Origin: an uncultured Bacteroidales bacterium
GTDB lineage: Bacteria > Bacteroidota > Bacteroidia > Bacteroidales > Paludibacteraceae
Length of the DNA stretch: 34,847 bases
Assembly (NCBI GenBank): GCA_902769535.1
Contig: CACXPH010000017.1
Coordinates: 1 to 34,847, forward strand
Direction of reading: 5' to 3'
Part shown: positions 752 through 28,917 of the stretch, in pieces
How positions within the stretch are numbered: the stretch's first letter is position 1
How the letters are laid out: every line of letters starts with the position of its first letter
Made by a program: the position numbers and the translations under genes
Notes under the pieces: model-generated
The model's input: the letters and a program-made list of their open reading frames with translations, nothing else
Told to the model about the DNA's origin: nothing
The model's database searches: none

Positions 752-1480
752 ATGGTTTTAGTTTTTGCATCGAATAATGCGCATAAGTTAGAGGAAGTGC
801 GCGGGATTATGCCGGCCGGTATTGAGGTACTGAGTCTTAGAGATATCGGTTTTGAATCCGAGATAGAAGAGACGGGTACGACACTGGAGGAGAATAGCCT
901 GATAAAGGCTGAAGCCGTTTATCATTGGATATTGGACAATGGACATTGGACATTGGACGGTGTGTTTGCGGATGATACGGGATTGGAGATCGATGCGTTA
1001 GGCGGTAAGCCGGGAGTGTACACCGCGCGCTGGTACTCGCGTTCGCACTCCTCAGACACGCGTAACGACAATGTCGTTACGATAGGTCCTCGGAAGCTCC
1101 GCTCTCCCCAAAAATCAGCAGATTATTTGGGGACCCCAATGTCTGAACGGGAGATTTTTGCGGCCAATAGGGCAAAGGCTTTGCGTGAATTGAAAGGAAA
1201 AGAAGATCGAAGCGCACAATTCCGAACGGTAATAACTCTTATAAGGTTAAAGGACGGCGCAGAGCGCCTACAGGACGCTACGCTACAGGTAGAAGGGATT
1301 GTACGGGGACGGATAGCAGAGGAAGAGTTCGGACAAGGCGGGTTCGGGTACGACCCGATCTTCATTCCGGAAGGCTACGACAAGACTTTCGGTGAGTTAC
1401 CGGCAGCAATAAAAAACGGGATTAGCCATCGGGCTCGCGCCTTGCAGGCTCTGGTAAAGGTTATAGGTTATGGGTTATAG
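752..1480 (+). CDS. rdgB: XTP/dITP diphosphatase (RdgB/HAM1) with two inserts
   Basis: RdgB hydrolyses ITP, dITP and XTP to monophosphates and so keeps deaminated purines out of nucleic acids. The start MVLVFASNNAHKLEEV gives the family SNN.HK substrate motif. GTTLEENSLIKA, FADDTGLEIDALGG.PGVY and FGYDPIF are further family landmarks, as is the C-terminal SHRARAL. At 242 residues it is longer than the usual 190-200. The extra length sits in two places: about residues 58-69, encoded by a 7-base repeat, and about residues 95-132, encoded by DNA holding two hairpins. Both lie in surface loops in the fold, so activity may be kept. The frame opens far upstream, but residues before 752 are unlike the family. 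It overlaps porZ by 11 bases. Confidence 0.93.
   Translation: MVLVFASNNAHKLEEVRGIMPAGIEVLSLRDIGFESEIEETGTTLEENSLIKAEAVYHWILDNGHWTLDGVFADDTGLEIDALGGKPGVYTARWYSRSHSSDTRNDNVVTIGPRKLRSPQKSADYLGTPMSEREIFAANRAKALRELKGKEDRSAQFRTVITLIRLKDGAERLQDATLQVEGIVRGRIAEEEFGQGGFGYDPIFIPEGYDKTFGELPAAIKNGISHRARALQALVKVIGYGL
924..958 (+). repeat. Heptanucleotide repeat inside rdgB (unit ATTGGAC)
   Basis: Five consecutive 7-base units: ATTGGAT, ATTGGAC, AATGGAC, ATTGGAC, ATTGGAC. They encode WILDNGHWTLDG, a segment about seven residues longer than in normal RdgB proteins, which equals three 7-base units (21 bases) added in frame. Confidence 0.9.
1061..1132 (+). repeat. Double-hairpin insert in rdgB
   Basis: Two palindromes lie in a stretch with no counterpart in ordinary RdgB. 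CGTAACGAC/GTCGTTACG (1061-1069 and 1073-1081) is a perfect 9-bp stem with a 3-base loop. CCCCAAA/TTTGGGG (1106-1112 and 1126-1132) is a 7-bp stem. The translated segment (about residues 95-132, rich in S, R, D and N) looks like a disordered loop. This resembles a small non-coding insertion that kept the frame. Confidence 0.6.
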
Positions 1481-1485
1481 GTTAC
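1458..1485 (+). repeat. Heptanucleotide repeat at the rdgB/porZ junction
   Basis: Four units (AGGTTAT, AGGTTAT, GGGTTAT, AGGTTAC) span the end of rdgB and the start of porZ. The repeat supplies the last residues and stop codon of rdgB as well as the porZ start codon, and so creates the 11-base gene overlap. Confidence 0.85.
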
Positions 1486-4400
1486 GGATCATAGCAGTTC
1501 TTCTTTGTGCATGGACTTTTATCACGGCACAGGCAGGAGGATGGACGACGCATTTCGCGTATAACAACGTGACGCAGATAGCGATGGCGTCGGATAAGGT
1601 GTTTGCCATCTCAGACGGCAGTCTGTTCAGTGTGGACAAGCAGACCGAGCAGGTGCGCATATACAACCGTCAGTCGGGTTTGCACGCGACGGGGATCACG
1701 TGCATCCATTACGACGAGAAAGGGCAACAACTGATCATTGCCTATGATTTCGGTAAGATGGACATCTTGTCGAGCAGCGGTGTGCAGTATATCGGTGCGT
1801 TGTACGACAAGGACATGACGCAGCGCAAGACGATCTATAACATCACCATCAGCGGTCGCACGGCTTATCTGTCCACGCATTACGGAGTGCAGACGATGGA
1901 TTTGCGCGAGAACAAGTTAGTGGACAGTTATTGGTTGCGTCCGAATGGAGCGGAGACGCCTATTAAGGATGTACTATTGCGTGGCGACAGCATCTATGCG
2001 TTTGGCGAAGACAGTTTGTATTGCGCAAAACTGAGCGATCCGCTGTCGGACTATACGTACTGGCATCGCGAAAAACTCGGACGTATTGAGCGAGACAATG
2101 ATAAAGGTAAACACTATCAGGATGCCACTGACCACTGGTACGCCGGCTACACCGAGGGAATTGTTCGCTTCACACCTACCGAGCGTCTGACATATAAGCC
2201 AAACGGTCCGCTGCAGAATAATCCTTATCGTCTAACGGCACAGAACGGTATGCTGTATATGGTTCCTGGAGGCAGATGGGCCAGTGAATATCAAACACCT
2301 GCCGTAGTGATGTGCTACGACGGGCAACAATGGACGAATATCACGACCGACGCCATTAAGGCACAAACGCAGAACGAACCGAAGGACTTCCTGAACGTAG
2401 CCGTAGATGCGAAAGACAGAAATCATTATTTCGTAACCAGTTACGGCACAGGACTTTACGAATTCCGCGGCAATCAACTGGTGAGTCATGAGATAGCAGG
2501 AGGGGACAACTCGCTGACTGCCGTTGTGCCATCAAATCCAGCGCGTTATACTCGTTTGGATGGCGCCACGTTTGACACTAACGGTTCACTCTGGATGCTG
2601 GATGCCAACACGATGGGGCAGTTGCAATGCAAAGCCCATGATGGCTCATGGCATGGCATGGACATCAAGGCCGATAACGAGAATATAGCGCTTCACACAC
2701 CGGCAGGACTGGTGCTTGACAATCATCGGGCCAACCATAAATGGATTGCCGCCGCTCGCTACAATACATTTGTATGCCTCATCGATGACCACGGCTCTGC
2801 CTTTGACACCTCAGACGACCGCGTTCAACTGCGTACGGAATGGACCGATCAGCACGGAGAGACCTTCAAACCGGAGAATATACACGACATACGGCAAGAC
2901 GCTCAAGGTCGTTTGTGGTTGGCAACAGAGCAAGGAGTAGTCTATATTGATGCCGATACCGATTTCTTCGCATCCGATGCGATTGTTCGTCCTGAAATCA
3001 CTGATGAGAATGGTGAAAATCCCGTTGTTTCGCAACGTATTCACGCACTGTGTGAGGACGCGGAAGGACAGATGTGGTTAGGTACTCAGTTGCACGGAGT
3101 CTATGTCCTGAACAGCGAAGCGACGCAGATCATAGCGCATTACACCACAGACAACACCGCTATGCCTTCGGACGGCATCTTGTCGATAGCCTGCGACATA
3201 CAGAACGGCCATGTGTTCGTCGGGACAGGCGAAGGACTGGTAGAATACGACCCGAAGGGATGGGGGGAAGGTATTGAGAATGATGAATTGATGAATGGTG
3301 ACGCTTCGCTTAATGAGGGAGGCAGCATGCAGCAATGGAAATTACATTTCTCCTACTCTAATCCGGAAGAGATAGCGGCTTCGTCCAAACAGATCTACGC
3401 CGCAGCGAATGGTTCGTTGTTCAGCGTGGACCGCGCCGATGAGGCTCTTGTATATTGGAACAAGGCGACAGGTTTACATGGTACGTCCGTCTCTCATATC
3501 GCGTACGATGCGGCATCCAACAAACTGATTATTGCTTATGAGAACGGGCAGATAGACCTATTGGACGATGAGGGAAATGTGACACAGATGCCTGATTTAT
3601 CCATGAAGGCGGGCTCGATAGAGGTGACCGTCAACAGTATTTGTGTTGGTTCGAAGCACGTGTATCTTGCGATGCCGTTCGGTATTATTACTATTCAGCC
3701 GCGTAAAAGCGAAGTGAGTGACACCTATTATATCGGTGCGAATGGTATGTCTGTTCATGTGCAGCATGTAGCCGAATGGAATGACTCGATCTATGCTTTC
3801 TCGTTCGACCGGATGTATAAAGCTGCGCTGAAAGATAACTTGGTTGACTATTCGTTCTGGCAATCGGAGGTACTGCCGTTCGAGCAAGCGAGTCAGGTAG
3901 CAATATTCAAAGATCATCTCTATGTGCTGGCACACGATTCGCTCTATCGTCGCGAAGGTACGAACTGGCAGTTGGTTCGTCCGGAGAAAATCGTCTGGAT
4001 TCATGTGCATGACGGACAGTTAGTGGCTTACCAAAGCGGTACAGGACTGTTTAAGTTAACAGATGAGGATCAGTGGATAGGTCTGACGGACGGCTATGTA
4101 GCGACGGACGCTGTTTATTCGAACGGTGAATACTGGTTGGCAGAAGAAGGCAAAGGGTTAGTACGGATAGGAACGGAGGGAGATCAGTTCTTCCGTCCGG
4201 AAGGTCCGATGAGTAATTTCGGTTACAGACTCTTTGCAGCGCACGACCAGATATATGTAGCGCCGGGAGGTAGATGGGCTACGCAATTCGGTCGTCAGAG
4301 CGGTATGAGTATCTACGACGGACAGAGTTGGCGAGGTATTCCATGGCAAGACACATGGTACTACACGGACCACGACATCCGCGATGTTGTCAGTTACGCC

Positions 4401-5537
4401 ATCGATCCGAATGATGCGGGCCATTTTTTCGTAGCCACCTACGGAACAGGTGTGTTTGAATTCAAGGATTACAAGGCCATCGCGCATTACGATAGCGTCA
4501 ACAGTACGTTACGCGTAGCGCAGAAAGGATTAAGCGACTATTATTTCACGCGTACAGATGGCGCCATGATGGATGAGCAAGGTAACCTGTGGGTACTGAA
4601 TGCAACCGGTACAGGCAAGCCGATTCATGTGCGTAACACGTTCGGACAATGGAAAGGACTGGATTTACCGTTGACATTCACTACACCTACCGGTATATGG
4701 GTTGACAGCCGGAATGCGAACCGTAAATGGCTATTCGATCAGCGCGGAGACAATAAGGGAGTGATTCTTCTGGACGACGGAGGTACACCGACGAGCACGT
4801 ATGACGACCGGTATGTCAAGCGCAGTTCTTGGATCGATCAGAACGGCAATACCATTACTCCTTCTTCTTTCTATAGCTTTGCGCAAGACCACACGAATCG
4901 CATCTGGATCGGCACGGACAAGGGTATCGTACTTATTCCAAGTGGCGTAGATTTCTTCAGTTCGAACAGTTGTAATCGTATCATCATTCCGCGTAACGAT
5001 GGTACGAACTTAGGCGACTACTTGTTGGGAGATGAGCAGATCAACTGCCTGGCGGTGGATGGCGGCAACCGGATGTGGATTGGTACGGCCTCTTCGGGTT
5101 TGTACCTGATTGAAGATGACACGATCACCGTGGCGCATTTCACCGAGAACAACTCCTTACTGCCATCCAATACCATTCAGTCGATTGCTATCCTGCCGAA
5201 GACGGGTGAGGTGTTTGTGGGCACAGACAAAGGTATTGCCTCTTACCGTAGTGACGCGAGTGAGGCGCAGGAGGACATGAGCGGTGCGTATGCGTATCCT
5301 AACCCTGTACGACCGGGTTATAGCGGTGTTATTAGTATCACGGGACTGATGGATAACACGGTGGTTAACATCGTGGATGCAGGCGGTAACTTAGTCTGCA
5401 AGACTAAGAGTCACGGAGGCACAGCAGTCTGGGATGGAAAACTCCCGGATGGCAGACGAGCTACTCCGGGAGTCTATACAGCGATGTGTAATGCCGCTAA
5501 CGGGCATACAGTCGTTAAGATCTTAGTGGCCTATTAG
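1470..5537 (+). CDS. porZ: PorZ-like type IX secretion protein with duplicated propeller region
   Basis: PorZ belongs to the cell-surface attachment complex (PorU-V-Q-Z) of the type IX secretion system, which links cargo to A-LPS. A signal peptide (residues 1-22, ending AQA) precedes beta-propeller blades of the Reg_prop kind ([25 protein letters not shown]...[12 protein letters not shown]). About residues 1273-1355 form a sorting-type C-terminal domain ([16 protein letters not shown] ... [10 protein letters not shown]). At 1355 residues it is nearly twice the 780 or so of known PorZ. Residues 25-600 and 623-1265 are homologous copies: [34 protein letters not shown] and [26 protein letters not shown] recur about 598 residues apart. 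It overlaps the converging folE by 15 bases. Confidence 0.85.
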
Positions 5538-6107
5538 TTTCATAAACTCTTCGCGAGTTTTGGCTTGATTGAACACGCCAGTGAAGTCCGAAGTGACTGT
5601 CATGGCGTGTTGTTTCTGCACGCCACGCATCTGCATGCAGAGGTGTTCCGCTTCGATGACGACCATGACACCTAAGGGGTCGAGGGTGTTCTGGATGCAG
5701 TCCTTGATTTGGGTTGTAAGACGTTCCTGCACTTGCAGGCGACGGGCGAAGACATCCACCACGCGGGCAATCTTACTAAGACCTGTGATACGTCCGTTGG
5801 GGATATAGGCTACGTGGACCTTTCCAAAGAACGGCAACATATGATGCTCGCAGAGGGAGTAGAAATCAATATCCTTGACGACGACCATCTGGCGGTAGTC
5901 CTCTTCAAAGAGGGCAGAACGTAAAATGGCCTCGGGGTCTTCGTTATATCCTTTACAGAGGAACTGGAGTGCCTCTCCAACGCGTTTGGGGGTTTTGACA
6001 AGGCCTTCGCGTTGGGGATCCTCTCCTATCTGACGAAGCGACGCTTCAACGGCTTTCGCAATAGCCTCCGTCACCTCGGGTTTGCTATGAAAATCCTGCA
6101 GATTCAT
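5523..6107 (-). CDS. folE: GTP cyclohydrolase I (type IA)
   Basis: FolE converts GTP to 7,8-dihydroneopterin triphosphate, the first step of folate synthesis. At 194 residues it has the usual length. [35 protein letters not shown] carries the zinc-binding Cys and the catalytic His region. A second zinc Cys occurs in [22 protein letters not shown] and TSDFTGVF are further family motifs. Its start codon overlaps the stop of the SPOR gene as TAATG, so the two are translationally coupled. Its 3' end overlaps the converging porZ by 15 bases, leaving no room for a separate terminator on either side. Confidence 0.97.
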
Positions 6108-6496
6108 TATTGCATTACCAAAATCTTGTCACGCACAATGTAAGTATCACCCATCAGTTCGGGGTACTGCGCAACAAACTGTTTCTTATACTCTTTTGCC
6201 TCTTCGTAGGTACGGAAATCGCCAAGGCGCACTTTCCAGAACGGCGGCAGGTACTGGACATATATAGACTGGCTGATTCCGTTGCGCAGTTTCTGCTCCA
6301 AGTCCAACGCTTCGCTCTTGGCAGTCTGTTGCTGGTTGGACGAGTATATCTGCACGCGGTAACCATCCATCTCCACGAGTTCGTGCTTGCCGTTCATGGC
6401 CTCATCTAACAAGACCGTCATCATCGAGTCCTGCACGATCTGCACACCGGGAAGGGAGTCTAAAATCGATAGTAATATGACGAGGATTAATTTCAT
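6107..6496 (-). CDS. SPOR-domain exported protein
   Basis: A 129-residue protein with a hydrophobic N-terminus ([19 protein letters not shown]) that looks like a signal peptide. A SPOR domain covers about residues 45-127 (GYRVQIYSS ... ALDLEQKL ... [30 protein letters not shown]). SPOR domains bind peptidoglycan glycan strands lacking stem peptides, often at division sites, so it should act in the periplasm. It lies in an operon between the nucleoside kinase gene and folE, with TAATG coupling to folE. No specific role can be assigned. Confidence 0.85.
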
Positions 6497-6502: not shown

Positions 6503-6537
6503 ATTTATGATTTATGATTTATGATTTATGATTTCCA
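6503..6537 (-). repeat. Heptanucleotide repeat (ATTTATG on the + strand) upstream of the SPOR gene
   Basis: Four perfect copies of ATTTATG followed by ATTTCCA. They fill half of the 75-base gap between the nucleoside kinase stop (6572) and the SPOR start (6496). Further A/T-rich, less regular units continue to about 6556. Confidence 0.95.
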
Positions 6538-8266: not shown

Positions 8267-8272
8267 TGTTGT

Positions 8273-8307
8273 AACGGTTAACAGTTATCGGTTATGGGTT
8301 AACGGTT
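8273..8307 (-). repeat. Heptanucleotide repeat (AACGGTT type) between kdsA and the nucleoside kinase gene
   Basis: Five units: AACGGTT, AACAGTT, ATCGGTT, ATGGGTT, AACGGTT. The repeat fills the 25-base gap and runs into kdsA, where it supplies the stop codon and the last residues (TVNP). Confidence 0.9.
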
Positions 8308-9080
8308 ATGGTGTGTTCTATTTCCAAAGCTTGTTCAAGCAGATTTTTCATGTCCGCCAGGCGCACTTGGTTAGCGGCATCAGAGATGGCTTTGTCCGGA
8401 TCCGGGTGCGTCTCGATGAAGAGTCCGTCCACACCTACAGCGAGTGCGGCGCGCATGAGATAAGGCACCATGGTGCGGTTTCCACCAGTGACGCCGTTCT
8501 GCGAGGACGGTTGTTGGACTGAGTGCGTGGCATCAAAGACGACAGGACAGCCGAAACGACGCATCTCTACGAGGGACGTCATGTCCACTACGAGGCGGCC
8601 GTACCCGAAGGATGAACCACGTTCGGTAAGCCATATATGTCCTTCGCGTGCGGCATTCGGTTGCACCTGCTCGATCTTCTCAATCGCTCCTCCCATGTCC
8701 CAGGGAGCCATGAACTGGCCTTTCTTCACATTCACGATGCGTCCGGTAGCAGCCGCAGCCTGAAGCAAGTCTGTCTGACGAGAGAGGAAGGCGGGTATCT
8801 GCAACACATCCGCCACTTCGGCCGTCGGTGCACACTGATGAGTCTCATGTACATCGGTGAGGATAGGCAGGCCGAACTGCTCTTTGACGTCTTGTAAGAC
8901 ACGCAGTCCTTCGTCCATACCGACGCCTCGCGGGGAAGCCGAAGTTCGGTTGGCTTTATCGAAAGAGGACTTGAAATAAAGCGTTATCCCAAGGTCGTAG
9001 CAAAGGCGTCTGAGCGTCTCAGCAGTCGTCATGACGACGTCTCTATTCTCAATGGCACACGGGCCGGCAATGAGGAACAT
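8292..9080 (-). CDS. kdsA: 3-deoxy-8-phosphooctulonate synthase, metal-dependent class
   Basis: KdsA condenses phosphoenolpyruvate with arabinose 5-phosphate to give Kdo-8-phosphate for the lipid A inner core. At 262 residues it has the expected length. The start FLIAGPCAIEN has the Cys that marks the metal-dependent class. FKSSFDKANRTS, LPILTDVHE, VNVKKGQFMAPWDM, TERGSSFGYG and FDATHSVQQP are the usual active-site stretches. Its last residues lie in a 7-base repeat, so the natural C-terminus may vary between strains. Confidence 0.97.
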   Translation of the reverse strand: MFLIAGPCAIENRDVVMTTAETLRRLCYDLGITLYFKSSFDKANRTSASPRGVGMDEGLRVLQDVKEQFGLPILTDVHETHQCAPTAEVADVLQIPAFLSRQTDLLQAAAATGRIVNVKKGQFMAPWDMGGAIEKIEQVQPNAAREGHIWLTERGSSFGYGRLVVDMTSLVEMRRFGCPVVFDATHSVQQPSSQNGVTGGNRTMVPYLMRAALAVGVDGLFIETHPDPDKAISDAANQVRLADMKNLLEQALEIEHTITVNP

Positions 9081-9086: not shown

Positions 9087-9121
9087 ATTTGTGATTTGTG
9101 ATTTATGATTTGTTATTTCTC
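9087..9121 (-). repeat. Heptanucleotide repeat (ATTTGTG/ATTTATG) upstream of kdsA
   Basis: Five units: ATTTGTG, ATTTGTG, ATTTATG, ATTTGTT, ATTTCTC. They fill the 32-base gap between the GH16-like gene and kdsA and include the stop codon of the former. Confidence 0.9.
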
Positions 9122-10478: not shown

Positions 10479-10506
10479 ATTTATGATTTATAATTTATGA
10501 TTTCAA
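10479..10506 (-). repeat. Heptanucleotide repeat between the LOG and GH16-like genes
   Basis: Four units (ATTTATG, ATTTATA, ATTTATG, ATTTCAA) occupy the short gap and overlap the LOG gene. They supply its stop codon and the residues just before it. Confidence 0.9.
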
Positions 10507-11028
10507 ATTTTTGTACAGCTCTTCCAACGAGTTTACGAAAATAGGTTCGTAGCTCTGCTGGGCAGGGATAAAGTTCAGCTCCTGCATGTGCGTTATCTGC
10601 GCCTTAAGTGGCTCGTAGAAGCCGTTATAGTTCATCACATAGACGGGTTTGTGATGCTCACCTACGATGGCAGAAGAAGTAGCATCCATCATCTCGTCCA
10701 ATGTGCCATAACTGCCCGGCAGACAAACGATTACATCCGCTTCGTCACGCATCCGTTGTTTGCGTTCGGACATATTGTTCACCTCTATCAGATAGTCGCA
10801 GTTCGTCGCCAGTCGTCCTGCCGCTTTGATACGCGGAGGGATGACACCTATCACATGTGCACCTGCCGCTTTCGCCGCGTCGCTTGTCCGGGACATCAGT
10901 CCGCCTGTGGCACCTCCGTAAACCAGCGTATGGCCGTTTTTACCTATCCAGGTGCCCAGCGCATCCCCGAGTTGCAGATACTCCTCAGGAATTGCATCCT
11001 TCGCCGAACAATAGACCGCTATACGCAT
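10495..11028 (-). CDS. LOG-family (TIGR00730) nucleoside monophosphate phosphoribohydrolase
   Basis: A 177-residue Rossmann-fold protein of the LOG family, formerly annotated as lysine decarboxylase. The nucleotide-binding motif GGATGGLM and the catalytic motif PGSYGTLDEMMD (PGGxGTxxE type) are both present. Family members cleave AMP or cytokinin riboside monophosphates to the base and ribose 5-phosphate, and bacterial ones probably act in nucleotide housekeeping. It lies directly after gyrB and is separated from it by a 7-base repeat. The substrate cannot be told from sequence. Confidence 0.88.
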   Translation of the reverse strand: MRIAVYCSAKDAIPEEYLQLGDALGTWIGKNGHTLVYGGATGGLMSRTSDAAKAAGAHVIGVIPPRIKAAGRLATNCDYLIEVNNMSERKQRMRDEADVIVCLPGSYGTLDEMMDATSSAIVGEHHKPVYVMNYNGFYEPLKAQITHMQELNFIPAQQSYEPIFVNSLEELYKNLKS

Positions 11029-11029
11029 A

Positions 11030-13153
<2,124 letters not shown>

Positions 13154-14349: not shown

Positions 14350-14384
14350 CAAAATTAAAAATTAAAAATTAAGAATTAATTATT
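14350..14384 (+). repeat. Heptanucleotide repeat (AAAAATT type) in the mdh leader
   Basis: Units CAAAATT, AAAAATT, AAAAATT, AAGAATT, AATTATT lie just before the mdh start at 14405, inside the predicted transcript. Being A-rich and unstructured, it could help ribosome loading in an organism without Shine-Dalgarno sites. Confidence 0.85.
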
Positions 14385-14404
14385 GATTAAAAATATATAC
14401 AATT

Positions 14405-15350: not shown

Positions 15351-15378
15351 ATTTAGGATTTATAATTTCAAATTTCAA
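15351..15378 (+). repeat. Heptanucleotide repeat between mdh and SPT
   Basis: Four units (ATTTAGG, ATTTATA, ATTTCAA, ATTTCAA) end 5 bases before the SPT start codon. The unit family is the same as at minus-strand junctions, but here the downstream gene is on the plus strand. Confidence 0.9.
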
Positions 15379-15383
15379 ATTAG

Positions 15384-16569: not shown

Positions 16570-16597
16570 TAACGGCTAAAGGCTAACGGCTAATGGC
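16570..16597 (+). repeat. Heptanucleotide repeat (TAACGGC type) between SPT and the dehydrogenase gene
   Basis: Units TAACGGC, TAAAGGC, TAACGGC, TAATGGC. The last unit contains the ATG start of the next gene. Confidence 0.9.
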
Positions 16598-17402
16598 GAA
16601 AGTATTAGTTATTTCCGGCGGAAGTTCGGGTATAGGAAAAGCGACAGCCATGCTCTTTGCGGAGCGTGGCTGGCGTGTTTTTGAGTTAAGTCGGTCGGGT
16701 GCTCCCGACAGAGCAGATAGCCATTCGGACAAAGGTTCAATGACGCATATCAAATGCGATGTCTGCGACGAGAAGAGTACCAAAGCCGCTATCGCGGAGG
16801 TGCTGAAACAGGCCGAGACGATCGATGTGGTCATCTCGAATGCGGGGTTCGGTATCTCGGGTTCGGTGGAGTTCACGGAGATCAAAGAGGCCGAGCACCA
16901 GATGGATGTCAACTTCATGGGTGCTGTTCGTTTCACGCAGGCTGTTCTGCCGCAGTTACGCAAGCAACGAGGCGGACGATTGATCTACACCTCGTCGGTA
17001 GCTGCCGCATTGCCTGTACCTTATCAAGCTTTCTATTCGGCTTCCAAAGCGGCTATCAACGCGATGGCGCTGGCCTTGGCGAACGAGGTGAAGGATTTCG
17101 GAATTTCGGTGAGCGTTATGATGCCGGGTGATGTCAGCACGGGCTTCACGGACGCACGTTGTAAGTCAACGGCAGGCGAGGAAGTGTATACAGGCGCGAA
17201 CAAGGCCATCACGACCATGGAGCGCGATGAACGCGCAGGTATGAGTCCGAAACAGATGGCTGAGTTGTTCTATCACATAGCTACCTGTCACAGTCCGCGG
17301 CCGCAGTACGTAGGCGGGTTCAGTTACCGCGTGCTTTGCTTCTTAGACCGCATCCTGCCGAAGCGTTTCGTTAACTGGATCGAATATAAGGTTTATTCTT
17401 AG
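16593..17402 (+). CDS. Short-chain dehydrogenase/reductase, candidate 3-ketosphinganine reductase
   Basis: A 269-residue classical SDR. The cofactor motif is SGGSSGIGKA, followed by SNAGFG (NAG motif), a catalytic Ser in YTSSVAAALP and YSASK (catalytic Tyr and Lys). The C-terminus (SYRVLCFLDRILPKRFVNWIEY) is hydrophobic and amphipathic, as in membrane-associated lipid SDRs. It lies 24 bases after SPT, so reduction of 3-ketosphinganine is a reasonable guess from context and not shown by sequence alone. After beta-2 a hydrophilic insert (SGAPDRADSHSDKGS) is coded by DNA with a perfect hairpin (16694-16709). The stop codon lies in a 41-base tandem duplication. Confidence 0.8.
   Translation: MAKVLVISGGSSGIGKATAMLFAERGWRVFELSRSGAPDRADSHSDKGSMTHIKCDVCDEKSTKAAIAEVLKQAETIDVVISNAGFGISGSVEFTEIKEAEHQMDVNFMGAVRFTQAVLPQLRKQRGGRLIYTSSVAAALPVPYQAFYSASKAAINAMALALANEVKDFGISVSVMMPGDVSTGFTDARCKSTAGEEVYTGANKAITTMERDERAGMSPKQMAELFYHIATCHSPRPQYVGGFSYRVLCFLDRILPKRFVNWIEYKVYS
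16694..16709 (+). repeat. Hairpin in the loop-coding region of the dehydrogenase gene
   Basis: GTCGGG and CCCGAC form a perfect 6-bp stem around TGCT. It encodes part of a polar loop after the second strand of the Rossmann fold, a site that tolerates insertion. Confidence 0.5.
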
Positions 17403-17480
17403 CCGCAAGGGCACGATTATTTCTTGATTAAGCATATTCTTAGCCGCAAGGGCACGATTATTTCTTGATTAAGCATATTC
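17395..17480 (+). repeat. 41-base tandem duplication at the dehydrogenase/LD-carboxypeptidase junction
   Basis: Bases 17395-17435 are repeated exactly at 17436-17476, and four more bases continue the pattern. The unit begins ATTCTTAGCCGC and ends GATTAAGCAT. It contains both the stop codon of the dehydrogenase gene and the TTG start of the next gene, so each exists twice. The first copy of the TTG start opens a frame that ends after about 14 codons. Confidence 0.97.
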
Positions 17481-18343: not shown

Positions 18344-19018
18344 ATCCCTGATCAACAGATCACTCTTCCAGCAGTCCACATAACGTGTCAACGCGTCCAT
18401 GTGGTCTGTTCCACCGGATAGGTAATCGCTCGTAGCCACAGTGTATAAGGCTTTCGGGTTGACGGGTTTACCTCCTACCTGTACATCAGCCAAGTGGCCG
18501 TCAATGACGGTGACGCGCATTCCCGCTACACCTTGTCCGCCATACTGCGCGAAGGACTCGCAAAGCGAGATAATATCTTCGCCTTTGAGGGTGAGCACTA
18601 CAAGATGGTTGTCAAACGGCATGAGTTCGAACACATGTCCCTTCGTGATGGGTCCTTGAGGCCACTCGCAACGCATTCCCCCCATGTTCACGATCGCGAT
18701 ATTCAACTTACCCGGGTACACTTTTTTCGCTGCTTCCCATAAGGCGTCGGTAGCCCAGTTGAGCATCGGACACTCGGGTTCACGCACCCAGAGACGCTCG
18801 GGCGCATAACCGATCTGCACATTCATCTCGCGCTCCAAGTCGGCTTTGGTAGGAGCCAGATAGGCGATATACGCGGCATCCTGCACACCGTCAGCACGCG
18901 CATCTACGGGCAGCGCCTCGGTGGTAACGGAAGTGACTTGAACGGGTTGCTTCGTGCAGGCCGTGAACGCAACGGAATACAGAATACAGAATACAGAATA
19001 CAGAATTAGTTTTCGCAT
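18269..19018 (-). CDS. 5'-nucleotidase C-terminal domain lipoprotein
   Basis: A 249-residue lipoprotein holding only the C-terminal, nucleotide-binding half of UshA-type 5'-nucleotidases: IVNMGGMRCEWPQG, GHVFELMPFDNHLVVLTLKG and YTVATSDYLSGGTDHM. The metallophosphatase half is absent here, and a gene for it lies at 28062-28883. The lipobox is FTAC (Cys near residue 21). The hydrophobic core ILYSVFCILYSV is encoded by a 7-base repeat. It overlaps psuG by 13 bases at its start and the converging ldcA by 75 bases at its end, and is last in the psuK-psuG operon. Alone it should not hydrolyse nucleotides, so it probably pairs with the separate N-terminal half. Confidence 0.88.
   Translation of the reverse strand: MRKLILYSVFCILYSVAFTACTKQPVQVTSVTTEALPVDARADGVQDAAYIAYLAPTKADLEREMNVQIGYAPERLWVREPECPMLNWATDALWEAAKKVYPGKLNIAIVNMGGMRCEWPQGPITKGHVFELMPFDNHLVVLTLKGEDIISLCESFAQYGGQGVAGMRVTVIDGHLADVQVGGKPVNPKALYTVATSDYLSGGTDHMDALTRYVDCWKSDLLIRDLYLEAVQTQDTIRAAVDGRMTMKP
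18974..19008 (-). repeat. Heptanucleotide repeat encoding a signal peptide core
   Basis: Five units (GGAATAC, AGAATAC three times, AGAATTA on the + strand). Read on the minus strand they encode LILYSVFCILYSV, the hydrophobic core of the lipoprotein signal peptide, with a seven-residue period (21 bases, three units). Confidence 0.95.
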
Positions 19019-19920: not shown

Positions 19921-19990
19921 ATTTATGATTTATGATTTCAAATTTATGATTTCAAATTTATGATTTCAAATTTATGATTTCAAATTTACA
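19921..19990 (-). repeat. Long heptanucleotide repeat between psuK and psuG
   Basis: Ten units in a row: ATTTATG twice, then ATTTCAA and ATTTATG alternating, ending ATTTACA. At 70 bases it is the longest such array in the window. It fills the whole gap and contains the psuK stop codon. The 14-base super-period suggests duplication of unit pairs. Confidence 0.97.
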
Positions 19991-21142: not shown

Positions 21143-21820
21143 TCACCCTTCTAAGAGATCCGGACGACGTTGTTGGGTGTGTTCGAGTGATTGGTCGTAG
21201 AGCCACTCTTCAATCTTGGCTTGGTGGCCTGAGAGCAGTATTTCCGGCACTTTCCATCCTTTATAGTCGGCAGGACGCGTATAAACACCGGCTTCTAAGA
21301 GTCCGTCCTGGAACGAGTCGTTTAATGCACTTTCGACATCTCCAAGCGCACCTGGCAGCAGACGCACGATAGCGTCCGTCATCATCGCAGCCGGCATCTC
21401 ACCTCCGGTGAGCACAAAGTCGCCGATGCTATACTCGCGCGTAATAAGATGATCGCGCACGCGTTGATCGACACCTTTATAGTGTCCACAGAGGATGATG
21501 ATGTTCTGTTTGAGAGAAAGACTGTTTGCTGCTTTCTGATCAAATCGTTCGCCGTCAGGAGCTGTGAAGATGATCTCGTCATAGTCCCGTTCGGACTTGA
21601 GATGCGAGATGAGTCGGTCGATCGGTTCGACCTGGAGCACCATTCCAGCACCAAAACCAAAGGCATAGTCATCCACTTTGCGATGTTTGTCCAGTGTCCA
21701 ATCGCGTAAGTTATGCACGTATATCTCGCAAAGGCCTTTATCCTTCGCGCGCTGGATGATGGAGTGGTTAAGCGGCGACTCCAAGAGTTCAGGGCAACAA
21801 GTTATAATATCAATGCGCAT
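21143..21820 (-). CDS. trmD: tRNA (guanine-37-N1)-methyltransferase
   Basis: TrmD methylates G37 of tRNAs with G36, using S-adenosylmethionine, to prevent frameshifting. The 225-residue protein has the trefoil-knot region [13 protein letters not shown] ... [15 protein letters not shown] and [43 protein letters not shown]. The N-terminal binding loop reads [14 protein letters not shown], whereas most TrmD have a P(Y/F)GGG.GM sequence there. Two positions therefore differ, though the rest is normal. It is the last gene of the long minus-strand cluster and is separated from yidD by a 7-base repeat. Confidence 0.95.
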
Positions 21821-21853
21821 TTATGATTTATAATTTCAAATTTATGATTTAGG
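21819..21853 (-). repeat. Heptanucleotide repeat between yidD and trmD
   Basis: Five units: ATTTATG, ATTTATA, ATTTCAA, ATTTATG, ATTTAGG. It fills the gap and covers the yidD stop codon. Confidence 0.93.
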
Positions 21854-22085
21854 GTACAGGGTCGTAGCCGGAACCACCCCATGGATGGCAACGCAGGATG
21901 CGCTTGATACCAAGCCAACCGCCTTTGAACGGACCGTATTTGAGTACGGCCTCCACCATATACTGGCTGCAAGTCGGCGTGAAGCGGCAGGACGGCGGTG
22001 TGAGCGGCGATATACAATACCGATAGAAATAAACCGGCAGGAGGAAAAATTTCCTGAGAAATATTTTCCATTTGTCATTGGTCAT
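21849..22085 (-). CDS. yidD: Membrane protein insertion efficiency factor YidD
   Basis: A 78-residue protein that assists YidC-mediated membrane insertion. The family core is complete: [58 protein letters not shown], with three conserved cysteines. The start MTNDKWK at 22085 overlaps the rnpA stop as ATGA and gives normal length, so the in-frame ATG at 22118 is rejected. The rnpA-yidD order is the common bacterial one. Confidence 0.95.
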
Positions 22086-22096
22086 TTGTGATTGCT
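22069..22096 (-). repeat. Heptanucleotide repeat at the rnpA/yidD overlap
   Basis: Units CATTTGT, CATTGGT, CATTTGT, GATTGCT. It lies across the end of rnpA and the first codons of yidD, and so encodes part of both proteins. Confidence 0.7.
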
Positions 22097-22426
22097 TATT
22101 TTCTTCAGGGCTTTGCATACTGCTTTCTCTATCAGCGCATAGGGTTGTTGTTCTTTATCCATGTAGTTAAAGGCAATCAGGTAATGCCCGTCCAACAGGT
22201 CTTGGTTTTGCCTATAGGCCTCACGCATGAGACGCCGTAGATGGTTTCGGTGCACGGCACGTTTGAAGAGCGATTTGGGTGCCCAGATAAGCACTTGAGA
22301 TTCCTCTTGCGTCGGTTGATACGTCACCCGCAGCGGCCAAGCCACGAACCGCTCACCCTCTTTGTAGAGTCGGGCGATGTGTAGTTGTCCACAGAGTTTG
22401 TTCTGTTTGGGAAACGTATTAGCCAT
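22082..22426 (-). CDS. rnpA: Ribonuclease P protein component
   Basis: RnpA is the protein subunit of RNase P, which matures the 5' ends of tRNAs. The 114-residue protein has a basic N-terminus ([22 protein letters not shown]) and a family signature helix [19 protein letters not shown] with the RNR-type motif. MANTFPK at 22426 is preferred over the ATG three codons earlier. It is tightly packed between hemD and yidD. Confidence 0.95.
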
Positions 22427-23835: not shown

Positions 23836-25085
23836 AAATATAGTTTATCGCCGCGGCGGATAAGTGTATCCGTTTTGAGCGAGAAGAATTGTCCTTTGGA
23901 TATACGCATAGCGGGTTGACCTTTTGCATCGCGCAGTCCTTCCGCCTTGCATTCATACACACCGGTGGTCTCACCGGTAATGAGCAGATCTTGCCCCTCT
24001 TCGATGGCATCCACCGCCTCTACAAGGAACTCTGCCACACTGAGGTTCTTGAAGAAATTCGTACATTTGGCCGCGTAGATCTTCTTGCGCGTCGCCTTGT
24101 TCCCGTACGAATGCGTCCATTCGCCGAGTCGTTGGCCTTGGTAGTAACCGTCCCAGAAACCGCGATTGAAGACCCGACTGAGTCGTTCGTTCCAATCGGC
24201 GATCTTGGGTTCAATGATTGCATTGTCGGCATATTCACCGCGTTGCCATGCCTCGACTGCTTCTTTGTAGCACCGCACAACGGTGTCCACATATTCGGCT
24301 CCACGAGCACGGCCTTCGATCTTGAGTACCCGCACACCGGCATCGAGCATCTTATTGAGGAAATGGATAGTCTTAAGATCCTTCGGACTCATGATATACT
24401 GATTGTCGATATCCAGTTCGAGGTCCGAGGACTTGTCCTTGACGGTATAGCCACGACGGCATACTTGCACACACGCACCGCGGTTAGCCGACAGGCCGTA
24501 GTTATTGAGACTCATGTAACACTTTCCGCTCACCGCCATGCAGAGCGCACCGTGGCAGAACATCTCAATACGTATCGGGTTGCCGCTACGACCGCATATA
24601 TGCTGCGTTTGGATGTCTCTGTAGATAGATGCCACCTGCTCCATGTTCAGTTCGCGCGCCAGCACAACAACATCTGCAAATTGCGCATAGAACTTAAGCG
24701 CCTCCGTGTTTGCGATGTTGAGTTGGGTGGACAGATGCACTTCCTGACCAATCGAATTGGCGTATTGCATTACCGAGATGTCCGAGGCAATGACGGCATC
24801 CACGCCGACAGCGTGTGCCTTATCGACTATCTCGCGCATCAACGGCAGGTCTTCGGGATACATGACAGTGTTCACCGTAAGGTAAGTCCTGACGCCTGCT
24901 TCGCGACAAGTAGCCACGATCGTGCTCATGTCGTCCGTCGTGAAATTGACTGACGAGCGGGCGCGCATGTTTAGGTGCTCAATACCGAAATAGACGCTGG
25001 TAGCCCCGGCATTGATTGCCGCCGCCAAACTCTCCCAGCACCCAACGGGGGCCATGATTTCAATATTTGAGATTTGTGATTTCAA
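23823..25085 (-). CDS. Peptidase U32 family protein (RlhA-like)
   Basis: A 420-residue U32 protein. The family signature E.F..G.LC....G.C..S is seen as EMFCHGALCMAVSGKCYMS, followed by the conserved cysteines in NRGACVQVCRRGY that probably bind an iron-sulfur cluster. Characterised U32 members hydroxylate 23S rRNA (RlhA) or ubiquinone, and peptidase activity is doubtful. The conserved start IEIMAPVGCWESLAAAINAGATSVYFG begins near residue 8. The first residues (MKSQISNIE) come from a 7-base repeat. An alternative ATG at 25055 would cut into the first strand, so 25085 is preferred. Confidence 0.9.
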   Translation of the reverse strand: MKSQISNIEIMAPVGCWESLAAAINAGATSVYFGIEHLNMRARSSVNFTTDDMSTIVATCREAGVRTYLTVNTVMYPEDLPLMREIVDKAHAVGVDAVIASDISVMQYANSIGQEVHLSTQLNIANTEALKFYAQFADVVVLARELNMEQVASIYRDIQTQHICGRSGNPIRIEMFCHGALCMAVSGKCYMSLNNYGLSANRGACVQVCRRGYTVKDKSSDLELDIDNQYIMSPKDLKTIHFLNKMLDAGVRVLKIEGRARGAEYVDTVVRCYKEAVEAWQRGEYADNAIIEPKIADWNERLSRVFNRGFWDGYYQGQRLGEWTHSYGNKATRKKIYAAKCTNFFKNLSVAEFLVEAVDAIEEGQDLLITGETTGVYECKAEGLRDAKGQPAMRISKGQFFSLKTDTLIRRGDKLYLWTE

Positions 25086-25113
25086 ATTTCAAATTTATGA
25101 TTTTTGATTTATC
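25057..25113 (-). repeat. Heptanucleotide repeat spanning the asd stop and U32 start
   Basis: Eight units of the ATTTCAA/ATTTATG/ATTTGTG family, one of them with an extra base. The repeat encodes the last residues and stop of asd, fills the 9-base gap, and encodes the first residues of the U32 protein. Confidence 0.93.
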
Positions 25114-26099
25114 AGATACTCCGCTATTTGTACGGCATTGAGCGCGGCACCTTTGCGGATCTGGTCACTCACACACCAGAAACTCAGGCCGTTCTCGTCC
25201 GTCAGGTCTTTGCGGACACGACCGATGAACACCTCATCCTTACCGCTCAGGAACAGCGGCATCGGGTAAATCTTATTTTCCGGCTCGTCCATGAGCACAC
25301 AACCTTGAGAGGTAGCAAAAGCTTCTTTGGCCTCAGCCACGCTGATGGGTCGTTCGGTCTCGAGCCATATACTCTCGCTATGGGCACGGAGCGAAGGCAC
25401 ACGCACACAAGTCGCACTAACTTTGACGTCCGAATGCATGATCTTACGCGTCTCGTTGAACATCTTCATCTCCTCTTTGGTGTACCCGTTGTCAGTGAAC
25501 ACATCGATATGAGGGATGAGGTTATACGCCAATTGATACGCGAACTTATTCACCGTTACTTCCTCGCCGTTCAGCACCTGACGGTATTGGTTCTCCAACT
25601 CTTTCATCGCCTGCGCACCTGCTCCTGACGCAGCCTGATAGGTTGCTACATGTACACGACGAATATGACTCAGACGCTCGATAGCCTGCAAAGCCACTAC
25701 CATCTGGATCGTCGTGCAGTTCGGGTTGGCAATGATATTACGGGGACGGTTGAGTGCATCCGCTGCATTCACTTCGGGCACCACCAGAGGCACATCCTCG
25801 TCCATACGGAAGGCCGAAGAGTTATCAATCATGATGGCACCGAAACGAGTGATGTCCTCTGCGTACGCACGGGACACGCTCGCACCCGCGGAGACAAAAG
25901 CAATATCGACGCCTTTGAAAGCGTCGTCATGTTGGAGCAGTTGTACGGTGTACGGTGTGCCTCTGAACGTATAGGTTCTTCCTGCACTGCGTTCCGATCC
26001 GAAAAGTCTTAGTTCGGAGATAGGAAATTGCCGCTGTTCAAGAACAGCAAGCAATTCCTGTCCGACGGCGCCTGAAGCGCCTACGATAGCTACTACCAT
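25095..26099 (-). CDS. asd: Aspartate-semialdehyde dehydrogenase
   Basis: Asd reduces aspartyl phosphate to aspartate semialdehyde with NADPH, feeding lysine, threonine, methionine and diaminopimelate synthesis. The 334-residue protein begins [15 protein letters not shown] (NADP-binding loop). The catalytic Cys is in [12 protein letters not shown] and the His in [29 protein letters not shown] is another family stretch. One base separates its start from the stop of the small wHTH gene upstream. Confidence 0.97.
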
Positions 26100-26351: not shown

Positions 26352-26357
26352 ATGGTT

Positions 26358-27674: not shown

Positions 27675-27695
27675 CAAACTCAAGTGAAAAGAAAA

Positions 27696-28051: not shown

Positions 28052-28061
28052 TTTTTTTGCC

Positions 28062-28883
28062 TTATTTTTCATTTTTGCAACCTAAATGTAGCACAATCTT
28101 ACCCAAATAGGCTCCACTCTTACCCATTTGGCATACCGGCATACTGTCTCCGTCGAGATTGGCCACGCGTAAATTATCATATAATTTATGGGTATGCCCA
28201 CCAATGACTACATCGATGCCACGGGTATGACTTACGAGAGCCGTGTCGCATACATCTTCCGGCGCTTTTCCGAAAGTACCCATGTGACTCAAACACACCA
28301 CGAGGTCACATCCTTGTGCCCGCAACGTATCTGCAGCCGCTTGTGCTACCGGATAAGGTTCCAGATAAACAGCCGGCAGGAAATTCTTATCAGAGATTAT
28401 ACCCTTCGGGTCGCAACCTAAACCGAAAATACCAATCTTGAGTGCACCCTTGCGCACGATGGTATAAGGTTTAACGATGCCTTCCAGCACCGTTCCCGTG
28501 AAGTCATAATTAGCACAGACGATAGGGAACTTAGCCGTCTTAAGCACGGCAGCCAGGGTGTCGAGACCGTTGTCGAACTCATGATTACCAAGCGTTACGG
28601 CATCGTAACGCATCCTGTTCATCGCATCCAACTCCACCCGACCGTGGTAATAATTGAAATAAGGTGTCCCTTGACAGAAATCACCGGCATCCACCAGCAG
28701 CAGGTTCTTATCCGCCTTGCGCTCCTCCGCAATCAGCCCCATCCGACGGGCATACCCGCCTTGGTCATTGGCTTTGGGTTCCACCTGCGAATGCGTATCA
28801 TTCGTATGCAGGATCGTCAGATGATCCGGTGTGCATGCGATGCATAAAAGAGCTACAAGAGCATAGAAGAAAGCGTGTTTCAT
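28062..28883 (-). CDS. Metallophosphatase lipoprotein (5'-nucleotidase N-terminal half)
   Basis: A 273-residue lipoprotein (lipobox LCIAC, Cys near residue 17) with all metallophosphoesterase motifs of the UshA N-terminal domain: LHTNDTH, LLLVDAGDF, TLGNHEFDNG, VCLSHMG and VIGGHTH. It lacks the C-terminal substrate-binding domain, which is encoded separately at 18269-19018. Facing the periplasm, it probably removes phosphate from nucleotides together with that partner. It lies downstream of mutL with a 7-base repeat between. Confidence 0.92.
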   Translation of the reverse strand: MKHAFFYALVALLCIACTPDHLTILHTNDTHSQVEPKANDQGGYARRMGLIAEERKADKNLLLVDAGDFCQGTPYFNYYHGRVELDAMNRMRYDAVTLGNHEFDNGLDTLAAVLKTAKFPIVCANYDFTGTVLEGIVKPYTIVRKGALKIGIFGLGCDPKGIISDKNFLPAVYLEPYPVAQAAADTLRAQGCDLVVCLSHMGTFGKAPEDVCDTALVSHTRGIDVVIGGHTHKLYDNLRVANLDGDSMPVCQMGKSGAYLGKIVLHLGCKNEK

Positions 28884-28889
28884 AGTATT

Positions 28890-28917
28890 AAAATCAAAAA
28901 TCTAAAATCTAAAATCT
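28890..28917 (-). repeat. Heptanucleotide repeat (AAAATCT) between mutL and the metallophosphatase gene
   Basis: Units AAAATCA, AAAATCT, AAAATCT, AAAATCT. It fills the 25-base gap and contains the mutL stop codon and its last Phe codon. Confidence 0.92.

What the first reader, a model, noticed from the sequence alone, without database searches (positions are those of the whole stretch)
924..28917. Sixteen unrelated short tandem repeats share an exact seven-base period
Arrays at 924, 1458, 6503, 8273, 9087, 10479, 11030, 14350, 15351, 16570, 18974, 19921, 21819, 22069, 25057 and 28890 have different units (ATTTATG/ATTTCAA, AACGGTT, TAACGGC, GAATACA, ATTGGAC, AAAATTA, AAAATCT, CATTTGT) but all step by seven bases, with 4-10 units. 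Nearly all sit at gene junctions, and many contain the neighbour's stop or start codon. Seven is not a codon multiple, so this is not protein-driven. A common period with unlike sequences points to one generating process (a polymerase, a template-copying or a slippage mechanism) rather than spread of one element. Heptanucleotide repeats are known in cyanobacteria; I do not know of a described equivalent here.
Basis: partly seen in the sequence, partly recalled or inferred. Interest (0 to 1): 0.8.

Follow-up and report, generated by a model that had tools for sequence, protein, structure and literature searches.

The report
Seven-base repeats overwriting genes and gaps
An uncultured gut-type bacterium carries many short stretches that repeat every seven bases, both between genes and inside spare loops of housekeeping proteins, and related species carry different repeat words at some of the same spots, as if the stretches were being copied around each genome.

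Summary
TRF finds all 16 arrays. The window has 12-13 arrays at lag 7; 30 dinucleotide shuffles gave none. In 835 kb of this genome 91 of 200 arrays have period 7, or 120 with periods 14 and 21.

The reading needs three changes. (1) About half lie at junctions: 65 of 132 in co-directional gaps, 59 inside predicted reading frames, among them RdgB, RuvA, MurG, IspD, RsgA and Fmt. (2) The units are not unlike: 137 arrays use 61 units (119 expected), with 218 same-unit pairs (21 expected), and vocabularies differ between species. (3) Some orthologous loops in sister species hold an array of another unit at the same length (Fmt, MurG, RsgA).

Best explanation: 7-nt arrays arise by slippage, then are copied and homogenised within and between loci by short, length-neutral recombination or template switching; selection leaves them where frame and stops allow. 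Copying is inferred, not seen; shared variant order was only marginally above shuffles.

Heptanucleotide arrays are known in many bacteria; this is a new variant of that kind.

The parts
923..958 (+). ATTGGAC array, about five units, inside the rdgB/Ham1 reading frame (752-1480), coding HWILDNGHWTLD in the loop before the ADDTGLE motif
   Evidence: TRF 7 x 5.1; Ham1 PF01725 on frame 512-1480; ortholog loop comparison
1458..1484 (+). AGGTTAT array over the stop of the Ham1 frame (1480) and the start region of the PorZ-like frame 1470-5537
6503..6534 (-). perfect ATTTATG array (CATAAAT in gene sense), 6 nt upstream of the SPOR-domain gene 6107-6496
   Evidence: lag-7 identity 25/25
8272..8311 (-). 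TAACGGT-type array between the DAHP synthase end (8292) and the PRK/uridine kinase-like gene start (8266)
9087..9118 (-). ATTTGTG array between the GH16-like gene end (9113) and the DAHP synthase start (9080)
10479..10510 (-). ATTTATG array holding the stop codon of the PF03641 (LOG-like) gene 10495-11028, upstream of 9113-10468
11029..11064 (-). 14-bp (two-heptamer) ATTTATG/ATTTCAA array filling the gyrB to LOG-like junction
   Evidence: TRF 14 x 2.6, 100%
14351..14389 (+). AAAATTA array upstream of the frame 14405-15346 (its family was not tested)
15351..15381 (+). ATTTATA/ATTTCAA array between 14405-15346 and the class I/II aminotransferase gene 15384-16568
16570..16602 (+). TAACGGC array between the aminotransferase stop (16568) and the short-chain dehydrogenase start (16593); a unit (TAATGGC) carries the ATG
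18975..19006 (-). perfect GAATACA array at the stop of 19006-19920 and the 5' end of the 5'-nucleotidase-C-type frame 18269-19018
   Evidence: lag-7 identity 25/25
19921..19988 (-). longest array: (ATTTATG ATTTCAA)n between the PfkB gene end (19986) and the indigoidine-synthase-A-like gene start (19920)
   Evidence: TRF 14 x 4.4, 100%
21819..21851 (-). degenerate ATTTATG/ATTTATA array at the start of the tRNA_m1G_MT (TrmD-like) gene 21143-21820
22069..22101 (-). degenerate CATTTGT array at overlapping short frames near 22071-22118
25054..25112 (-). ATTTCAA/ATTTATG array with a phase break, between 25095-26099 and the U32 peptidase gene 23823-25085 (start codon uncertain)
28889..28917 (-). AAAATCT array between the stop of 28909-30714 and the start of 28062-28883

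Best explanation
These are members of a genome-wide, lineage-specific swarm of short heptanucleotide arrays, about 30 bp (4-5 units) each. Shown: period 7 dominates in this genome and in the G006 sample. Arrays sit in short co-directional gaps and inside predicted reading frames. Units recur at unrelated loci far beyond chance in own and G006, and vocabularies differ between the species sampled. Some orthologous loops carry arrays of a different unit, in Fmt, MurG and RsgA at identical length. Inferred: a new array starts when DNA synthesis slips or switches template by seven nucleotides. Existing arrays then convert each other, within a locus and between loci, by short-tract non-crossover recombination or template switching. 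An exchange between two period-7 arrays in register does not change length, so it is tolerated even in a coding loop, and it keeps the period fixed while the unit changes. Selection removes copies that break genes; what stays is in loops (in frame, without in-frame stops) and in gaps between the stop of one gene and the start of the next. No function is needed to explain the set; single arrays may have been put to use.
For: Restricted vocabulary: 61 units for 137 arrays against 119+-3.9 expected; 218 same-unit pairs against 21+-5.9; G006 82 against 2+-1.6; 9.5 and 15.3 pairs when units are drawn from genome or intergenic 7-mers; holds without the commonest units and at a stricter threshold. 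CDS arrays alone: 42 pairs against 2.7 (maximum 8) under a stop-free null (11 of the 66 CDS consensus units are not themselves stop-free). Longer units recur too: of 28 period-11 arrays, 49 of 378 pairs lie within two mismatches, null mean 2.3, maximum 4. Species specificity: exact AAAGTCG x3 in 17 of 61 genus genomes, most in G021 (17 hits), G006 (15) and G351 (14), none in own; AAATCAT x3 in 7 of 61, 30 hits in G360; overlapping registers are counted as hits; reversed-pattern control zero in both. Site reuse: nine own coding loops against four close relatives give 34 cells found; 8 hold an array (score 11 or more), 7 with another unit; random 81-bp windows reach that score in 11 to 36 of 3000. 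Same length, different unit: Fmt loop 30 nt in own, G002, G004, G014; MurG 33 nt in own, G014, G003; RsgA 33 nt in own and G014. IspD loop array 32/33 identical between own and G014 while the rest of the main aligned block is 340/473, as expected if copies are kept alike by a shared pool. The in-frame TGA slot reads TTA in 11 of 12 CDS arrays of three TGA-bearing families (counted by eye).
Against: Sharing of variant order between loci is only marginal: own 11 pairs against unit-order shuffles mean 6.9, maximum 10, and column shuffles mean 4.1, maximum 11; G006 17 against 8.6 (maximum 23) and 5.55 (maximum 14); 20 shuffles each. Neighbouring arrays do not share units once the commonest unit is dropped (2 of 255, p 0.93) or at threshold 14 (2 of 123, p 0.74). 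G002 is not beyond its null (5 same-unit pairs, null maximum 5). Five of the 8 occupied ortholog cells are G014; RuvA (0 of 8 cells) and DUF1015 (0 of 6) show none. Relative to close relatives without an array, RsgA (33 against 12 nt) and Fmt (30 against 9 nt) fit a plain gain of three units. The commonest own unit occurs as an exact triple at only one own locus. Units overlap a little between species (rates 0.003-0.007 against 0.0023 random), so part of the restriction could be a sequence preference. No strain-level data, so no exchange was seen directly.
Confidence: 0.5

Rival explanations
1. Independent replication slippage at each locus. The polymerase tends to slip by about seven nucleotides (the contact-length idea credited to Mrazek et al. 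2007), and arrays survive where nothing is broken. No copying between loci.
For: Period 7 is the leading period in own and G006. Arrays at orthologous junctions come and go between species. RsgA: 33 nt against a 12-nt loop that in relatives already reads CAG....CAG (+21); Fmt 30 against 9 (+21). Variant-order sharing is only marginally above shuffles. Period 7 is reported as the top category in most genomes.
Against: Ten-fold excess of same-unit pairs in own and more in G006, in coding and non-coding arrays alike. Against the commonest length in close relatives the net differences are 0 (MurG), +12 (IspD, RuvA second loop), +48 (RuvA first loop) and -3 (RdgB); apart from zero these are not multiples of 7. 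Single-unit slips would frameshift genes that are essential in model bacteria (recalled).
Confidence: 0.28
2. Selected cis-regulatory elements at gene junctions: stop codons in all three frames, promoter boxes, or an unstructured leader for translation without Shine-Dalgarno pairing.
For: In 61 co-directional junction arrays, three-frame stops occur in sense in 41 and antisense in 20 (sense-only 25, antisense-only 4); control junction 30-mers 29 and 24 of 273. CATAAAT orientation 11 to 2. The pair CATAAAT-TTGAAAT spells TAAATTTG, which fits the Bacteroidota -7 box TAnnTTTG (consensus recalled).
Against: 59 of 132 arrays are inside predicted reading frames. The sense bias comes mostly from arrays that cover the upstream gene end (19 to 2); for arrays wholly in the gap it is 6 to 2. 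TAnnTTTG is sense-biased in arrays (13 to 3) but in control junctions as well (23 to 6), and a full TTTG-N19-21-TAnnTTTG occurs in 1 of 61. Many orthologous junctions of sister species have no array.
Confidence: 0.1
3. A dedicated element or enzyme (for example a reverse transcriptase, an HUH transposase acting on repeats, or an unusual polymerase) inserts arrays.
For: Period-7 density differs strongly among species of one genus (0 to 10 per 100 kb in 80-kb samples), as if a factor were present or absent. Array lengths cluster at 24-39 bp (111 of 137).
Against: No gene-presence test was run, and target duplications were not scored; none was noticed in the loops compared. Density samples are small and many genomes incomplete.
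Confidence: 0.07
4. Assembly or binning artefact.
For: The named genus relatives with titles are nearly all metagenome-assembled, and so probably is this genome.
Against: Arrays occur in genomes from many separate projects (record titles, arrays in their loci), and frames stay open through them. Exact AAAGGTK triples occur in 13 of 296 phylum genomes, 12 of them at least 90% complete.
Confidence: 0.02

Closest known systems
Heptanucleotide class of long simple sequence repeats (Mrazek et al. 2007; not held, seen only as described in PMC4679880 and PMC4692102)
   Same: Tandem 7-nt units, 7 the leading category in most genomes; polymerase-slippage explanation offered there
   Different: Here about half lie inside predicted reading frames, vocabularies differ between species, and the unit is replaced at some orthologous loops
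TAACTGA direct repeats of marine Beggiatoaceae, cyanobacteria and five Bacteroidetes (MacGregor 2015, PMC4679880; abstract, sections 12 and 15 and passages read)
   Same: Short heptamer arrays just upstream of start codons, stops in all three frames in the forward sense, some inside frames, possible mobility raised; Paludibacter listed
   [quoted passage not shown] here about 60 units in 137 arrays of one genome
Four-heptanucleotide elements of Geobacter metallireducens (GGGACCG, 49 copies; PMC2700814, passages read)
   Different: One unit family read as a regulatory RNA element; no comparison of orthologous loops in the passages seen
GGGAATC / GGGGAYT heptamer repeats of Xanthomonas and Nostoc (PMC4692102, passages read)
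   Same: Species-enriched heptamer arrays, with length and sequence variation between close relatives
   Different: G-rich, quadruplex-forming, over-represented between genes; the arrays here are mostly A and T
Short tandem repeats across the tree of life (PMC12699852, passages read)
   Same: Names Bacteroidota as a phylum with high repeat density
   Different: The words heptanucleotide and hepta do not occur in its main text; no unit or ortholog analysis of this kind in the passages seen
Phase-variation simple sequence repeats
   Same: Tandem repeats near starts or inside genes
   Different: Coding arrays here keep the frame; copy-number switching was not testable

Membership tests
Heptanucleotide long simple sequence repeats (5-11 nt class) | Tandem arrays longer than chance, with period 7 the leading class | tested here: met
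   None in 30 shuffles of the window; 91 of 200 arrays in 835 kb have period 7
Heptanucleotide long simple sequence repeats (5-11 nt class) | Units that are not multiples of three avoid coding sequence | tested here: inconclusive
   Density 12.4 per 10 kb in co-directional gaps against 0.8 in CDS, but 59 of 132 arrays are in CDS
TAACTGA repeats | TAACTGA is the repeated unit and related heptamers are rarely repeated | tested here: not met
   61 different units in 137 arrays; TAACTGA (canonical AACTGAT) is not among the 45 commonest printed
TAACTGA repeats | Array within several nt upstream of a start codon, stops in all three frames in sense | tested here: inconclusive
   Median 23.5 nt from array centre to start in co-directional gaps; three-frame stops in sense in 41 of 61; about half of all arrays are elsewhere
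Phase-variation SSRs | Copy number changes between cells and switches expression | not testable with these tools
   No strain-level data
G-quadruplex heptamer repeats (Xanthomonas/Nostoc type) | Runs of three or four G per unit as the repeated word | tested here: not met
   Array letters in own: T 1513, A 1385, G 693, C 571; the commonest unit is AAATCAT, though some units such as ACGGGTT hold a GGG run
Mobile element with its own enzyme | Linked transposase or reverse transcriptase, or target-site duplication | not tested
   No gene-presence search was made; target duplications were not scored in the loop comparisons

The most novel reading that the evidence does not exclude
A genome-wide recombination network of 7-nt arrays rewrites operon gaps and loops of essential proteins by length-neutral, in-register exchange between unrelated loci. 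Tandem repeats at dozens of places thus evolve in concert within a species while keeping the period fixed, possibly through an unusual polymerase or short-homology recombination activity present in some species of the genus and absent in others.
Probability: 0.2. Interest if true: 0.8.

Novelty: new variant of a known kind. Interest (0 to 1): 0.55.

Why it matters
The predominance of seven-base repeats in bacteria has stood as an observation with a guess (polymerase contact length) since 2007. This genus offers a natural experiment: close species with many, few or no arrays in the samples taken, and orthologous loops of housekeeping genes where the array word changes while length and frame stay. 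That makes the choice between local slippage and copying between loci testable. It also warns that short odd peptides such as KGERLKV or VTGDGLP in predicted proteins can be repeat-coded inserts rather than functional motifs.

Tried and rejected
Block copying shown by shared variant order: looked convincing in a raw list (78 of 159 own pairs sharing at least 18 bp have two or more variant steps, 10-bp flanks included), but on the arrays alone at 21 bp it is only marginal against shuffles: own 11 against at most 10 (unit order) and at most 11 (columns); G006 17 against at most 23 and at most 14; 20 shuffles each. Not claimed.

Local spreading: same-unit pairs within 20-kb stretches were in excess (20 of 336, p 0.0015), but this is due to AAATCAT alone (2 of 255 without it, p 0.93) and is gone at threshold 14 (2 of 123, p 0.74). 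Not claimed.

Three-frame stop function: the sense bias is real but mostly in arrays that already cover the upstream stop codon.

Promoter reading of the ATTTATG/ATTTCAA arrays: TAnnTTTG is biased to sense in array and control junctions alike.

Period locked at 7 in every species: not so. G002 has many 8-, 15- and 16-bp arrays, G013 and G010 samples have more 11-bp than 7-bp arrays, and by eye some orthologous junctions hold 8- or 9-bp arrays.

AAAGGTK x3 as a word special to this genus: 13 of 296 phylum genomes have it, but the reversed control also hits 7 of 296, one of them 20 times. Not used as support for species specificity.

Literature: ten searches (one search was on translation starts) listed no paper whose title or opening abstract describes replacement of heptamer arrays at orthologous loops. 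Only listings were seen, save the four papers named, and only open-licence PMC papers are held. Mrazek 2007 is not held, so it is cited second-hand.

Not done: no structure was predicted, no gene-presence correlation with array density was run, and viral contigs were not scanned.

Full report
WHERE IT IS. The window is contig C17 of a 1.89-Mb, 39-contig genome, 84.85% complete. Its gyrB is up to about 97-98% identical to metagenome genomes named Paludibacteraceae or Bacteroidales bacterium, several from goat, sheep and yak fore-stomach samples. PorZ, GTP cyclohydrolase I and GyrB are present. No tRNA gene was found in the window.

THE OBSERVATION. TRF finds an array at all 16 listed places; lag-7 identities are. 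The lag-7 scan finds 12-13 arrays in the window and none in 30 dinucleotide shuffles. In 834,847 bp of this genome (window plus 40 stretches) the non-overlapping scan for periods 1-30 gives 200 arrays: period 7, 91; 11, 28; 14, 20; 8, 19; 21, 9; 9, 8; every other period 3 or fewer. In the same call, period-7 density per 100 kb was 10.9 in own, 10.0 in G006, 5.0 in G016, 2.5 in G013, 1.2 in G010 and 0 in G007 (80 kb each for the relatives). Five genomes of other families gave 1 period-7 array in 400 kb, E. coli K-12 none in 50 kb, and two loci labelled Euzebyella and Cytophaga none in 44 kb. An earlier set with a third distant locus did show some (about 3 of period 7 and 3 of period 14 in 65 kb). 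In a larger sample G006 has 41 period-7 arrays and G002 16, with 13 of period 8 and 11 each of 15 and 16. So the richness and the exact period belong to some species, not to the whole genus.

WHERE THE ARRAYS SIT. With a home-made gene caller (hexamer score; start codons approximate), 132 arrays of period 7, 14 or 21 fall as follows: 65 in co-directional gaps, 59 in reading frames, 3 convergent, 2 divergent, 3 at stretch ends. Per 10 kb that is 12.4 in co-directional gaps, 2.75 convergent, 1.7 divergent and 0.8 in frames. In co-directional gaps the array centre lies at a median 14 nt from the upstream stop and 23.5 nt from the downstream start. The coding arrays encode odd inserts, for example VTGDGLPVTGDGLPVTG in RuvA, GERLKVKGEKR in MurG, KGERLKVKVES in IspD, EVMGYGLPVM in Fmt, QSTEYRVQNTD in RsgA, and in the window HWILDNGHWTLD in RdgB. 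Twelve array-bearing frames were checked by family: Ham1, RuvA, IspD, Fmt, RsgA, DUF1015, RsmH (MraW), DapB, MnmA-type, QueA-type and a THUMP-like frame by Pfam, MurG by PDB match. In the MnmA- and QueA-type frames the array is at the predicted start, where the start codon may be misplaced. The RdgB insert lengthens a loop relative to the solved homolog 1vp2. That murG and ispD are essential in model bacteria is recalled, not tested here.

LENGTH. Arrays cluster at 24-39 bp (111 of 137; median 30); in frames 33 of 66 are 30-33 bp. Exact lag-7 match runs fall from 579 (length 5) to 7 (length 9) and rise again to 25, 26, 11 and 20 at lengths 10-13; lag 8 shows no such second peak.

VOCABULARY. 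Reducing each array to its consensus heptamer (rotations and strands merged), own has 137 arrays but 61 units (119+-3.9 expected from array base composition) and 218 same-unit pairs (21+-5.9, maximum 38 of 300 simulations). G006 has 57 arrays, 30 units and 82 pairs (2+-1.6, maximum 9). G002 has 28 arrays, 23 units and 5 pairs (1+-0.9, maximum 5), so it is not beyond its null. Sampling units from genome or intergenic 7-mers gives 9.5 and 15.3 pairs. The own result stands without the commonest unit (127 pairs, null maximum 39) and at threshold 14 (74, null maximum 26); G006 without its two commonest units has 18 (null maximum 7). Same-unit rates: within own 0.023, within G006 0.051, within G002 0.013, across species 0.003-0.007, random 0.0023. 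Coding arrays alone: 43 units in 66, 42 pairs against 2.7+-1.7 under a stop-free null (11 of the 66 consensus units are not themselves stop-free). Coding and non-coding arrays share units at rate 0.0115. Recurring families also exist at other periods: period 11 in own (49 of 378 pairs within two mismatches, null mean 2.3) and period 16 in G002 (22 of 78, null 0). Whole-genome exact searches of 61 genus genomes: AAAGTCG x3 in 17, with 17, 15 and 14 hits in G021, G006 and G351 and none in own; AAATCAT x3 in 7, with 30 hits in G360 and 2 overlapping hits at one locus in own (own's arrays of this family are mostly mixed with ATTTCAA, so few are exact triples). Overlapping registers count as separate hits; reversed controls were zero in both. 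AAAGGTK x3 is in 13 of 296 phylum genomes, own with nine separate places, but its reversed control hits 7 of 296, one with 20, so that word is weak evidence.

ORTHOLOGOUS SITES. Six conserved genes (gyrB, LOG-like, GH16-like, DAHP synthase, PRK-like, SPOR) give five junctions in up to 26 related loci besides the window. Arrays are present in some species and absent in others, with different words, and the gap itself ranges from overlap to hundreds of bases. In coding loops: MurG is 33 nt in own (GGTGAAA words), G014 (AAAATTA), G003 (AAAATCA), G002 (a decayed 21-nt repetition read by eye; score 5) and G004 (no array), and 30 in G005, G006 and G008. Fmt is 30 nt in own (GTTACGG), G002 and G004 (ACAATGG) and G014 (AAAGTCG), but 9 in G003, 24 in G020 and 6 in G006. 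RsgA is 33 nt in own and G014, 12 in G003, G004 and G021, 15 in G002, 30 in G020. IspD is 33 nt in own and G014, 21 in eight other genomes, 24 in five, and 63 with a GAGCAAG array in G005; G016 and G009 also have 33 nt (weak score 9 and none), three loci 51, one 6, two not anchored. RuvA is 57 against 9 nt and 33 against 21-24 nt in the four closest. RdgB is 36 nt in own, 39 in G002 and G004, 45 in G014 (AAAGGTG type), 54 in G003. The two DUF1015 loops show no 7-bp array in the relatives read (G020 has an 8-bp one by eye). An UlaG-like frame (label recalled) shows the same at 36 nt: CTTTCGA words in L058 and L060, AATGTCA/AATATCA in L062, and a 54-nt 8-bp array in L057. Over nine own loops and four close relatives (34 cells found, 2 missing) 8 hold an array scoring 11 or more, 7 with another unit; 5 of the 8 are in G014. 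Random 81-bp windows reach this in 11 (G002), 25 (G006) and 36 (own) of 3000. These loops were chosen because own has arrays there, so this shows that the same places are prone in sister species, not how common such places are.

TWO TELLING DETAILS. (1) The IspD array is 32/33 identical between own and G014, while the rest of the main aligned block is 340/473: a stretch without an array in most other relatives is more conserved than its gene. (2) Coding arrays of TGA-bearing units would meet an in-frame TGA every 21 nt. In 11 of 12 such arrays (AAAGGTG 5 of 5, GAGCGGT 4 of 5, TTGAAAG 2 of 2) the slot reads TTA, and in the other TCA, although eight single changes would remove the stop. This was counted by eye, for three families picked after seeing the list; one further AAAGTTG array read in the opposite sense was left out. 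The divergent-gap array L040:4530-4561 shows the same GTG-GTT-GTG order without needing it (one case).

MECHANISM. Slippage alone explains the period but not the shared words, the unchanged lengths in MurG and Fmt, or net changes such as +12, +48 and -3. Copying alone does not explain why 7. The best joint reading is slippage for birth and short, in-register, non-crossover exchange for spread and turnover, with selection on frame and stops. Two tests gave it little or no help: variant order is only marginally more shared than in shuffles, and there is no regional clustering beyond one unit. RsgA and Fmt also fit a simple three-unit gain. Hence confidence 0.5.

KNOWN OR NEW. Heptamer arrays are known, and Bacteroidota are named as rich in short tandem repeats (passage). 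Intragenic copies are reported for Beggiatoaceae and Geobacter. I did not find a report of species-specific many-unit vocabularies or of same-length unit replacement at orthologous loops in the ten searches made (listings only, save the four papers named). From memory only: repeat-coded peptides of this style occur in predicted proteins of other phyla; not tested.

Noticed in passing
window 17394-17480: A perfect 41-bp unit repeated 2.1 times (TRF 100%) between the short-chain dehydrogenase and the S66 peptidase-type frame; unlike the heptamer arrays.
   Followed up: no
window about 1055-1180 (RdgB residues 102-143): RdgB carries about 40 extra residues after the ADDTGLE region; in many genus relatives the match breaks into residues 1 to about 100 and about 127-138 to 238, and 1vp2 skips 102-143.
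   Followed up: partly
L195-L214 (G002) and L162-L165, L215-L234 (G006): Dispersed families of 16-bp (G002) and 23-bp (G006) tandem units of the type AGCGGTCT...CAGCG, recurring at several loci; by eye a similar one sits at the junction orthologous to window 18975 in G002 (L207).
   Followed up: partly
own genome, period-11 arrays: 28 period-11 arrays with recurring units such as ACATAGGATAT and AAACATAGGAC, densest in divergent gaps and nearly absent from reading frames (2 of 28).
   Followed up: partly
window 11029-11064 and 19921-19988: The alternation CATAAAT-TTGAAAT spells TAAATTTG, a fit to the Bacteroidota -7 promoter box (recalled); a 14-bp array of about three copies gives TTTG-N20-TAAATTTG.
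   Followed up: partly
L319 (G005 IspD loop): An independent GAGCAAG array of about four units in the same IspD loop, inside a 63-nt insert.
   Followed up: no
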